A stretch of DNA of 64,000 bases from Peptostreptococcus porci (GTDB taxonomy: Bacteria; Bacillota; Clostridia; Peptostreptococcales; Peptostreptococcaceae): assembly GCF_009695815.1 (NCBI RefSeq), contig NZ_VUNE01000001.1:558001-622000 (forward strand), read 5' to 3'. Position numbers and translations under genes: made by a program. Positions 19,970 through 63,889 of the stretch are shown piece after piece (the first letter of the stretch is position 1; every line of letters starts with the position of its first letter). The notes below the pieces were generated by a model that worked only from the letters and a program-made list of their open reading frames with translations, was not told the origin of the DNA and ran no database searches.

Positions 19970-19980
19970 TACAAGGTATC

Positions 19981-20306
19981 AAGTATGGCAGATGATCGCG
20001 TGTTTTAACACGAGGAAAGTCGGAGCTCCACAGAGCAGGGTGCTAGGTAACGCCTAGTGAGAGCGATCTTAAGGATAGTGCAACAGAAATAAACCGCCAA
20101 TTTTTGGTAAGGATGGAAAGGCGAGGTAAGAGCTCACCAGCATATAGGTGACTATATGGCTATGTAAACCCCACCTGGTGCAAGGCCAAGATAGGAATAA
20201 GAGATGTTGCTCGCATCTCCCGGATGGTAGGCCGCTTGAACTTGTCGGTGACGGCAAGTCTAGATAGATGATCATCTAATACAGAACTCCGCTTATAGCC
20301 ATGCTT
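19981..20306 (+). ncRNA. rnpB: RNase P RNA component (bacterial)
   Basis: This is the catalytic RNA that trims the 5' leader of pre-tRNAs. Conserved segments are visible: gaggaaagtc near the 5' end (P4/J3-4 region), acagaaataaaccgcc, a ggtaagagctcacc hairpin, gatggtaggccgctt, and the 3' tail acagaactccgcttatag that completes P4. The terminal helix P1 pairs aagtatggc (19981-19989) with gccatgctt (20298-20306), allowing one G-U pair; this sets the ends. Subtype A or B was not decided. The gene is flanked by its own promoter and terminator. Confidence 0.95.
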
Positions 20307-20344
20307 AATTAACATAAAAATGAGTCGATATTAATCGTCTTTTT

Positions 20345-60462: not shown

Positions 60463-60477
60463 ATTATCTAACAAAAG

Positions 60478-60713
60478 AAAAAGCTATGACGAAGACAGTA
60501 TCATATTTATAGTTTCGAGCGAGTCGGGTATGGTGTGAGCCGATAAATGATGAAATATGAGAATATCACTTCCGAGCAGAAGGCTGAAAATAGCAGTAAG
60601 CCGACCGGGTAGTTCCGATATGGACTGAAGAGAGCCTATATTATTTATAGGAACTAGGGTGGTAACGCGATTTTAACTCGTCCCTTGCAAATGCAAGGCG
60701 ACGAGTTTTTTTA
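60478..60713 (+). promoter_or_regulatory. T-box riboswitch (tRNA-Ile sensing) upstream of ileS
   Basis: The leader binds uncharged tRNA and turns on ileS. The conserved T-box sequence agggtggtaacgcg is at 60656-60669 (the usual form is agggtggtaccgcg, so one base differs). Its tggt can pair with the ACCA end of tRNA-Ile. A probable specifier atc (Ile) is at 60565-60567 in the internal loop after gagaat. The region ends in the intrinsic terminator at 60675-60713, whose 5' arm can also form the antiterminator. Confidence 0.93.
60675..60713 (+). terminator. T-box regulatory terminator
   Basis: Outer stem aactcgtc (60675-60682) with gacgagtt (60700-60707), extended inward by ccttgca/tgcaagg, then a T-run. 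It is formed when tRNA-Ile is charged. Confidence 0.9.
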
Positions 60714-60763: not shown

Positions 60764-63700
60764 ATGGAAAAAGAATTTGTGTTTGAGCCACTTAATGATT
60801 GTGGTATATCGAAAGCAGAGGAAGACACTCTTAAAAGATGGAGAGAGGACAACATATTAGAAAGAGTATTGGAAAAGGGAAAAAATGATCCTACATATGT
60901 ATTTTATGAAGGACCTCCAACAGCAAATGGTAATCCAGGTATTCACCATGTAATATCGAGAACTCTTAAAGACTGGGTTTGTAGATATAAAACTATGAGT
61001 GGTTATAAGGTTCCAAGAAAAGCAGGTTGGGATACTCATGGTCTTCCTGTTGAACTGCAGGTAGAAAAAGAGTTGGGACTTTCTAGTAAGAAAGCGATAG
61101 AAGAATACGGGATAGAAGATTTTTGTACAAAATGTAGAGAATCTGTATTCACATATGAAAAAAGTTGGCGAGAAATGTCTGAAAGAATGGCTTATTCAGT
61201 TGATTTGGATGATCCATATATAACACTAGACAATGATTATATCGAATCTCTTTGGTGGATTCTAGACAAGTTTAATAAAGAAGGGTTGCTTTATGAAGGT
61301 CACAAGATACTTCCATACTGTCCAAGATGTGGTACTGGTCTTGCATCACATGAGGTAGCACAAGGATATAAGGAAGTAAAGAGCAATACTTTGGTAGCAA
61401 AGTTCAAAAAGAAAGGAACTGAAAATGAATACTTCCTTGCTTGGACGACGACTCCATGGACATTGCCTTCGAATGTGGCTTTGACAGTAAATTCTGATGT
61501 TGAATACGTAAGAGCAAAAAAAGGTGACGAAGTATATTATTTGGCAAAAGTATTGGCAGATAAGCATTTGGGTGAAGGTGAATATGAGGTTCTAGAAGTC
61601 TTGAAAGGTAAAGATCTTGAATACATGGAATATGAACAACTAATGCCGTTTGTAGAAGTTGATGGTAAGGCGTTTTATGTGACTTGTGCAGACTATGTAA
61701 CTGTTACTGATGGTACTGGTATAGTTCACTCTGCACCAGCATTTGGTGAAGATGACTATAATATGGGTAGAGCATATTCACTTCCATTTGTTCAGCCGGT
61801 TGATTCTGAAGGAAAATTTACTGCGACACCATGGCAGGGAAGATTTGTAATGGAAGATGGACTTGACGTCGAAATAATAAAATACTTGGCTGGCGAGAAT
61901 AAACTTTACTCAAAAGAAAAAGTTGAGCATAATTATCCACACTGCTGGAGATGTGGAACTCCTTTGGTATACTATGCTAATCCTGGCTGGTACCTTGAAA
62001 TGACAAAACTAAAAGACAAATTAATAGCGAATAATAACGGTGTAAATTGGTTCCCAGAATTTGTCGGTCAGGGTAGATTTGGAAACTGGCTAGAAGAATT
62101 AAAGGACTGGGCTCTTTCAAGATCAAGATATTGGGGTACTCCACTTCCTGTATGGAAATGTGAATGTGGATGTATTGAAACGATAGGTTCCAGAGCAGAA
62201 TTGGCTGAAAAGGCGATAGAAGATATAGATCCTGAAACAATAGAACTACATAGACCATACATAGATGAAGTTCATTTGACTTGTCCTGATTGTGGAAAGC
62301 CAATGTCAAGAATACCTGAGGTTGCAGACTGTTGGTTTGATTCAGGAGCAATGCCTTTTGCACAATGGCATTATCCGTTTGAACATAAAGATGATTTTGA
62401 CAAGTTGTTCCCAGCAGATTATATCTGTGAAGGTATAGATCAGACTAGAGGTTGGTTCTATTCATTGCTCGCAGTATCAACATTCGTTACTGGAAAATCA
62501 CCATACAAAAATGTACTTGTAACAGATCTTGTATTGGACAAAGATGGTAAGAAAATGTCTAAGTCAAAGGGAAATACAATAAATCCATTTGAAATGTTTG
62601 ATAAATATGGTGTTGATGCATTAAGATGGTACCTACTATACGTTTCTCCACCATGGACTCCAATAAGATTTGATGAGGATGGTTTGAAGGAAATAATGTC
62701 TAAGTTTATAGGAACGTTGAAGAATACATATAATTTCTTCACACTATATGCAAATACAGACAATCTAAACCCTACTGATCTCTTTGTTGAATACAAGGAC
62801 AGACCGGAATTGGATAGATGGATGCTTTCTAAATTCAACAACCTTGCAAAGGAAATCGAAGAATATCTAGAAGTATTTGATGTAAATAAGGCGATAAGAA
62901 GAATGACTGAATTCTTGAATGATGATTTGTCTAACTGGTATATCAGAAGATCTAGAAGAAGATTCTGGGGAACTGAGTTAACAGAAGATAAGAAATCTGT
63001 TTACAATACAACTTACGAAGTATTAAATGGATTTGTGAGAATGGTGGCACCATTTGCACCATACTTATCTGAAGAAATGTATAGAAAATTAACTGGAGAA
63101 TACTCTGTACATTGTGCGGATTATCCAAAATGTAATTCTGAGTTAATCGACGCAGAATTAGAAGCAAAGATGGATTTAACAAAGAATTTGGTAACATTGG
63201 GAAGATCTGCTAGAGAAAACTCAAAGATCAAGGTTAGACAGCCGATAGCAGAAGTATTGATAGATGGTAAATATGAGGATACAATATCTGATTTGGTAGA
63301 ATTGATGAAGGAAGAGCTTAATGTAAAGGAAGTAGTGTTTGCGAAAAATCTTGATGAGTTTATGAATTTCTCATTAAAACCAAACTTTAAGGTTCTAGGA
63401 CCAGTTTTAGGTAAGAATGTAAATGAATTTGCAAAAGTTCTTTCATCACTTGATGCACATAGTGTAGTTAACAAGTTGGAAGCTGGAGAAACTGTCAAGG
63501 TTGAAGTTGCTGGAAAAGAGTTTGAATTTGATAAAGAACAGGTTCTAGTAAATATAGAATCTAAAGAAGGTTTCAATGTCTCAATGGAAAACAATCTGTT
63601 CGTAATATTGGATACTACATTGACTGATGAGCTAATCAAAGAAGGTCTTGCGAGAGAATGTGTATCCAAAGTTCAGCAAATGAGAAAAGCCAGTGGATTT

Positions 63701-63889
63701 GAAGTTCTTGATAATATCAAGATCTACTATAATGGCGATAGTGAAGTTGAGGCTGCATTGAAAGATTTCGAAGACTATATAAAGACAGAAACTCTTGCGG
63801 TATCAATAGAAAAAGTTGATTCTTCAGATTTAGAGGTTCAAAACTTAAATGATCACGACACAGGTTTAAGGGTTGAAAAGGTAAAATAA
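60764..63889 (+). CDS. ileS: Isoleucyl-tRNA synthetase, type 2 (IleS2), with GXHH signature motif
   Basis: IleS charges tRNA-Ile. At 1,041 residues it is the long type-2 (eukaryote-like) form rather than the ~930-residue type 1, and shares the Tyr-Glu-Gly-Pro-Pro-Thr-Ala-Asn-Gly entrance. At the class I signature the sequence reads Gly59-Ile-His61-His62 instead of His-x-Gly-His, so the first and third residues of the motif are exchanged. Lys597-Met-Ser-Lys-Ser601 is the normal second signature. Type-2 enzymes are naturally insensitive to mupirocin, and the GXHH variety is reported to be extremely so. Editing domain and C-terminal tRNA-binding region are complete. It is controlled by the T-box; an aaggag site precedes the ATG. 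Confidence 0.95.
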   Translation: MEKEFVFEPLNDCGISKAEEDTLKRWREDNILERVLEKGKNDPTYVFYEGPPTANGNPGIHHVISRTLKDWVCRYKTMSGYKVPRKAGWDTHGLPVELQVEKELGLSSKKAIEEYGIEDFCTKCRESVFTYEKSWREMSERMAYSVDLDDPYITLDNDYIESLWWILDKFNKEGLLYEGHKILPYCPRCGTGLASHEVAQGYKEVKSNTLVAKFKKKGTENEYFLAWTTTPWTLPSNVALTVNSDVEYVRAKKGDEVYYLAKVLADKHLGEGEYEVLEVLKGKDLEYMEYEQLMPFVEVDGKAFYVTCADYVTVTDGTGIVHSAPAFGEDDYNMGRAYSLPFVQPVDSEGKFTATPWQGRFVMEDGLDVEIIKYLAGENKLYSKEKVEHNYPHCWRCGTPLVYYANPGWYLEMTKLKDKLIANNNGVNWFPEFVGQGRFGNWLEELKDWALSRSRYWGTPLPVWKCECGCIETIGSRAELAEKAIEDIDPETIELHRPYIDEVHLTCPDCGKPMSRIPEVADCWFDSGAMPFAQWHYPFEHKDDFDKLFPADYICEGIDQTRGWFYSLLAVSTFVTGKSPYKNVLVTDLVLDKDGKKMSKSKGNTINPFEMFDKYGVDALRWYLLYVSPPWTPIRFDEDGLKEIMSKFIGTLKNTYNFFTLYANTDNLNPTDLFVEYKDRPELDRWMLSKFNNLAKEIEEYLEVFDVNKAIRRMTEFLNDDLSNWYIRRSRRRFWGTELTEDKKSVYNTTYEVLNGFVRMVAPFAPYLSEEMYRKLTGEYSVHCADYPKCNSELIDAELEAKMDLTKNLVTLGRSARENSKIKVRQPIAEVLIDGKYEDTISDLVELMKEELNVKEVVFAKNLDEFMNFSLKPNFKVLGPVLGKNVNEFAKVLSSLDAHSVVNKLEAGETVKVEVAGKEFEFDKEQVLVNIESKEGFNVSMENNLFVILDTTLTDELIKEGLARECVSKVQQMRKASGFEVLDNIKIYYNGDSEVEAALKDFEDYIKTETLAVSIEKVDSSDLEVQNLNDHDTGLRVEKVK

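What the first reader, a model, noticed from the sequence alone, without database searches (positions are those of the whole stretch)
60938..60949. IleS carries G-I-H-H instead of the class I H-x-G-H signature
The sequence shows residues 59-62 as Gly-Ile-His-His, with an intact KMSKS at 597-601 and the length of a type-2 enzyme. Class I synthetases almost universally have His-x-Gly-His here. A variant with the first and third residues swapped (GXHH) has been reported in some type-2 IleRS with extreme resistance to mupirocin. The inference is natural hyper-resistance of this organism, from its only visible ileS.
Basis: partly seen in the sequence, partly recalled or inferred. Interest (0 to 1): 0.75.

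Follow-up and report, generated by a model that had tools for sequence, protein, structure and literature searches.

The report
Swapped-motif isoleucyl-tRNA synthetase, known kind
This bacterium's enzyme for loading isoleucine onto its tRNA carries a rearranged active-site motif that others have already described and tied to strong resistance to the antibiotic mupirocin; here it is simply the usual version seen in its relatives.

Summary
The ORF at 60764-63889 (+) is an isoleucyl-tRNA synthetase of 1041 residues with Gly-Ile-His-His at residues 59-62 (60938-60949) and KMSKS at 597-601. Alignment to solved structures puts GIHH on the HVGH column of type-2 IleRS without a gap there. It is the only ileS found in the genome. 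It is no oddity of one organism: 99 of 99 IleRS read in a sample of 100 related genomes, own included, have GXHH. The motif class was described and tested by Brkic et al. 2023 (PMC10485003): 86 G/AXHH against 77 HXGH type-2 enzymes in their tree. Two natural G/AXHH enzymes have millimolar mupirocin Ki, and exchanging the motif in three enzymes moved Ki by about 175- to 820-fold. Resistance of this enzyme and of the organism is unmeasured here. Residues that track GXHH (Asp588, Cys73, Asn587) were examined; Asp588 is not a strict partner, and shared descent can explain the rest.

The parts
60764..63889 (+). ileS, isoleucyl-tRNA synthetase, type 2 (IleRS2), 1041 aa
   Evidence: TIGR00392 951.8 bits over cut-off 621.4; Pfam tRNA-synt_1 and Anticodon_1; best structural match PmIleRS2
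60938..60949 (+). Non-canonical class I signature Gly-Ile-His-His (residues 59-62) in place of HXGH
62552..62566 (+). KMSKS signature, residues 597-601
   Evidence: residue 597; coordinates computed from the ORF start
62522..62527 (+). Thr587-Asp588, where most HXGH type-2 enzymes have X-Gly before KMSKS; substitutions that track the GXHH clade
60477..60688 (+). T-box leader of ileS; specifier read by eye as AUC (Ile) at 60565-60567
   Evidence: RF00230, 123 bits, gathering score 93; sequence; the specifier reading comes from no program

Best explanation
An ordinary housekeeping type-2 isoleucyl-tRNA synthetase of the natural G/AXHH subclass, in a Peptostreptococcus-like genome and with a T-box leader. 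The third-position His61 is inferred to do the transition-state work of the missing first His. That same bulky side chain should clash with mupirocin and raise Ki, into the high-micromolar to millimolar range if it behaves like tested homologues. Shown here: motif, type, single copy found, conservation among relatives. Inferred from published homologues: catalysis and resistance.
For: Motif and alignment; type-2 scores; one match over the ileS cut-off in the genome; GXHH in 99 of 99 IleRS read in the relatives sample of 100 genomes, 75 of 79 readable of 80 named genome contigs, and 30 of 30 loci read (28 other matched genomes not read) from the phylum sample around L073; the query lies in a 208-row clade that is all GXHH, support 0.967; published kinetics and structures.
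Against: No measurement on this enzyme. Published Ki for engineered GVHH enzymes varies (35 and 460 uM) and natural ALHH gives 6.6 mM, so the level here cannot be predicted well. GXHH is not general in the phylum: in a sample of 179 genomes, 30 of 46 type-2 IleRS are HXGH.
Confidence: 0.93

Rival explanations
1. The motif is a recent, organism-specific adaptation to mupirocin exposure.
For: The motif does confer resistance in tested homologues (PMC10485003).
Against: It is in every IleRS read of the genus, family and order sample (99 of 99) and in one large clade, so it predates this species.
Confidence: 0.02
2. The gene is a degenerate or specialised second IleRS and GIHH marks lost catalysis.
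For: Mutation of the first His lowers activation about a thousandfold in several class I enzymes (stated in PMC10485003).
Against: It is the only ileS found in a genome listed as 100% complete, the frame is intact, it has a T-box leader, and natural DrIleRS2 with ALHH is active.
Confidence: 0.02
3. In the main GXHH clade, Asp588 next to KMSKS is a structural partner of the relocated His61.
For: Asp588 in 210 of 217 GXHH rows against Gly in 31 of 34 HXGH type-2 rows (which adds the 30 loci to the 187 rows; 3 rows without the motif or the KMSKS stretch dropped).
Against: Two Bacteroidota GIHH enzymes keep Gly there (L286, L287); L024 has Gly, L042 Ala, L188 Asn; 23 other columns separate the two groups about as well, the motif columns 59 and 61 among them, so shared descent explains it.
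Confidence: 0.12

Closest known systems
Type-2 IleRS with the non-canonical G/AXHH motif (Brkic et al. 2023, PMC10485003; D. radiodurans ALHH, S. griseus)
   Same: Type-2 scores, first and third motif residues swapped, intact KMSKS, single ileS found
   Different: Only organism and sequence; kinetics not measured here
PmIleRS2 GVHH mutant, PDB 8c8w (P. megaterium)
   Same: Best-scoring solved sequence, 1071.7 bits, GVHH on the GIHH column
   Different: 8c8w is a laboratory mutant of an HVGH enzyme; here GIHH is natural; Asp-Leu in place of Gly-His before KMSKS
MupA / MupB plasmid IleRS2 of staphylococci (NF000257, NF000258)
   Same: Same wider family (993.5 and 961 bits)
   Different: Far below the 1900-bit MupA and MupB cut-offs; here a large-contig gene with a T-box, not a plasmid gene

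Membership tests
IleRS (TIGR00392) | Score over curated cut-off | tested here: met
   951.8 against 621.4 bits
IleRS type 2 | Closer to IleRS2 than IleRS1 over the full length | tested here: met
   PmIleRS2 1058.7-1071.7 bits against type-1 chains 8c9e, 8c9f, 1ffy 378.9-387.1 bits; tree sets it apart from 15 IleRS1 rows
IleRS type 2 | HYPFE motif named for the eukaryote-like group (PMC4861432, passage) | tested here: met
   HYPFE at residue 536
G/AXHH hyper-resistant IleRS2 | Gly or Ala at motif position 1, His at position 3, in register with HXGH | tested here: met
G/AXHH hyper-resistant IleRS2 | Mupirocin Ki far above HXGH IleRS2 (mM for the two natural enzymes measured) | not testable with these tools
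   needs the purified enzyme
MupA | Score over NF000257 cut-off of 1900 bits | tested here: not met
   993.5 bits
MupB | Score over NF000258 cut-off of 1900 bits | tested here: not met
   961 bits
Class I aaRS | HXGH-like and KMSKS signatures | tested here: inconclusive
   KMSKS met; HXGH replaced by the known G/AXHH variant

The most novel reading that the evidence does not exclude
In natural GXHH enzymes the class I motif swap is embedded in a co-fixed remodelling around the active site (Cys or Asn73, Asn587 and Asp637 in most of the main clade, with Cys73, Asn587 and Asp637 also in two Bacteroidota enzymes; Asp588 in the main clade only), so that His61 catalysis rests on a setting absent from the laboratory GVHH mutants that were crystallised. 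That these residues act together, or lie near His61, is not shown; this window's enzyme itself has Thr587.
Probability: 0.15. Interest if true: 0.3.

Novelty: new member of a known kind. Interest (0 to 1): 0.12.

Why it matters
It shows that a published natural exception to the class I HIGH rule is the state in every IleRS read from a sample of one anaerobe genus, family and order, so low mupirocin sensitivity there, if measured, would be old rather than acquired. It adds no new principle.

Tried and rejected
Rejected: misalignment hiding a canonical HXGH (one search shows the motif in register); a second ileS (the other hits are partial and under the cut-off; those on C1 near 76 kb and on C7 were read as ValRS- and LeuRS-like with HMGH, while L251, L252 and L253 were not read); MupA/MupB identity (far under cut-off); a strict partnership of Asp588 with GXHH (counter-examples).

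Led nowhere: paper searches for mupirocin with Peptostreptococcus (41 papers, 15 listed, listing only) and for intrinsic mupirocin resistance in anaerobes (51 papers, 15 listed, listing only) listed no title that promises data on this genus; no paper was found that holds both isoleucyl-tRNA synthetase and HLGT.

Full report
What is there. The ORF at 60764-63889 on the + strand encodes 1041 residues. Residues 59-62 are Gly-Ile-His-His, written GGT ATT CAC CAT at 60938-60949; KMSKS is at 597-601. NCBIfam gives ileS TIGR00392 at 951.8 bits against a cut-off of 621.4; the MupA and MupB models score 993.5 and 961 bits, but the cut-off of each is 1900. Pfam finds the class I catalytic, anticodon-binding and DUF5915 domains. 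The gene has a T-box leader at 60477-60688 (RF00230, 123 bits). By eye the specifier reads AUC at 60565-60567 (sequence), a codon for isoleucine; that reading is mine and comes from no program. Upstream ORFs in the same direction look like divIVA, ylmH, sepF and yggS (names recalled from the translations, not searched).

Alignment. Against all PDB chains, the best matches are P. megaterium IleRS2 (8c8w 1071.7, 8c8u 1064.1, 8c8v 1064.1, 8c9d 1058.7 bits). In the five alignments shown, GIHH aligns without a gap to GVHH in 8c8w and to HVGH in 8c8u, 8c8v, 8c9d and 1ile. T. thermophilus IleRS 1ile scores 859.8 bits; type-1 chains 8c9f, 8c9e and 1ffy score 378.9-387.1. The 8C entries are named in PMC10485003, 1ffy in PMC4861432.

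Copy number. The protein search of the genome (2,163,094 bases in 11 contigs, completeness listed as 100) returned six places, one of them full-length. The ileS family search returned ten places, one over the cut-off. Those near C1:76 kb read as ValRS-like (GQLHMGH) and those on C7 as LeuRS-like (GKIHMGH); these labels are mine, from motif and score. Three weak ones (L251, L252, L253; 60.8 bits or less) were not read. So the GIHH enzyme is the only ileS found.

How common it is. The best named match is Peptostreptococcus faecalis, 80%, and the window's genus-mates match at 80-97%, so I take the organism as Peptostreptococcus. Relatives: of 100 genomes (own included), 99 had an IleRS whose motif could be read, counting two fragments (L211, L213), and all 99 are GXHH (90 GIHH, 6 GVHH, 3 GLHH); the hundredth, G088, gave only one weak match of E 8e-55. 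Phylum sample: of 179 genomes, 178 matched. By score, 46 (own included) are type 2; 16 of these are GIHH and 30 HXGH. The other 132 I take as type 1 from their scores (the listing is cut short, with the lower scores left out). I fetched 55 of these 132 and read 54; none is GXHH. A sample around the genome of L073 (59 genomes, 58 matched, 30 loci kept and read, 28 not read) is 30 of 30 GIHH. Some loci of different calls are the same genome, so these sets overlap and are not added together.

Tree. FastTree on 260 query-anchored rows, rooted on the own-genome ValRS-like row, places 208 GXHH rows, the window's among them, in one clade (support 0.967), sister to 30 HXGH type-2 rows. Rows under 850 covered columns (L069, L211, L213, L228, L229) and identical rows were left out; type-1 rows, the ValRS-like row and L285 were exempt from the coverage rule. 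Two Bacteroidota GIHH rows (L286, L287) fall elsewhere, giving two parsimony changes, but the node that holds them with four HXGH rows has support of only 0.50. The paper also infers at least two origins; these need not be the same two.

What is known. Brkic et al. 2023 (PMC10485003; introduction, results 6-10, discussion and data availability read; supplements not seen) described the G/AXHH motif: 86 of 163 type-2 IleRS in their tree, none in type 1. Natural ALHH DrIleRS2 has a mupirocin Ki of 6.6 mM; changing it to HVGH gives 8.1 uM. GVHH in T. thermophilus and P. megaterium IleRS2 raises Ki from 0.20 to 35 uM and from 1.08 to 460 uM. The third His occupies the place of the first in catalysis and clashes with modelled mupirocin. 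An earlier paper reports a Ki of 10 mM for S. griseus IleRS (PMC4861432; passages and one section read). A search for hyper-resistance with mupirocin and IleRS2 listed three papers. Whether this genus was in the published tree I could not see.

A lead followed. The residue before KMSKS that is Gly in most HXGH enzymes is Asp588 here. Asp is in 183 of 187 GXHH rows and in 210 of 217 once the 30 loci are added; Gly is in 31 of 34 HXGH type-2 rows, Glu in 3. But L286 (Parabacteroides) and L287 (Phocaeicola) have GIHH with Gly, and L024 (Gly), L042 (Ala) and L188 (Asn) are further exceptions. In all, 24 columns, the motif's own 59 and 61 included, separate the two groups nearly completely. In each Bacteroidota GIHH enzyme, 11 of these 24 have the state of the GXHH clade (Ala65, Cys73, Asn121, Met142, Asn587 and Asp637 among them), 8 that of the HXGH group and 5 neither clearly. 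Asn121 is also in the HYGH enzyme L285. So Asp588 is a lineage trait, not a strict partner. Whether Cys73 or Asn587 belong with the motif, or only show that the Bacteroidota enzymes share its descent, these data cannot tell. The terms that I searched for in PMC10485003 gave no discussion of the residue at 588.

Verdict. Confirmed observation, ordinary biology of a known kind. Enzyme-level mupirocin hyper-resistance is likely by homology; organism-level resistance is unmeasured.

Noticed in passing
PMC10485003 says HXGH is present in all IleRS1. I recall that the PROSITE class I pattern allows Thr there, so it may be well known.
   Followed up: partly
window 60477-60688: T-box leader of ileS (RF00230, 123 bits), specifier read by eye as AUC; uncharged tRNA-Ile would be expected to raise ileS expression.
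   Followed up: partly
window 19980-20311: Bacterial class A RNase P RNA, 276.8 bits.
   Followed up: no
L141, L218, L222: HIGH type-2 enzymes with Thr-Glu instead of X-Gly before KMSKS, a minority among the HXGH enzymes (3 of 34).
   Followed up: no
L073 / G278: Contig titled Armatimonadota; a phylum sample drawn around its genome also contains G279, the genome of the Cloacimonetes locus L072, so the title may be wrong.
   Followed up: no
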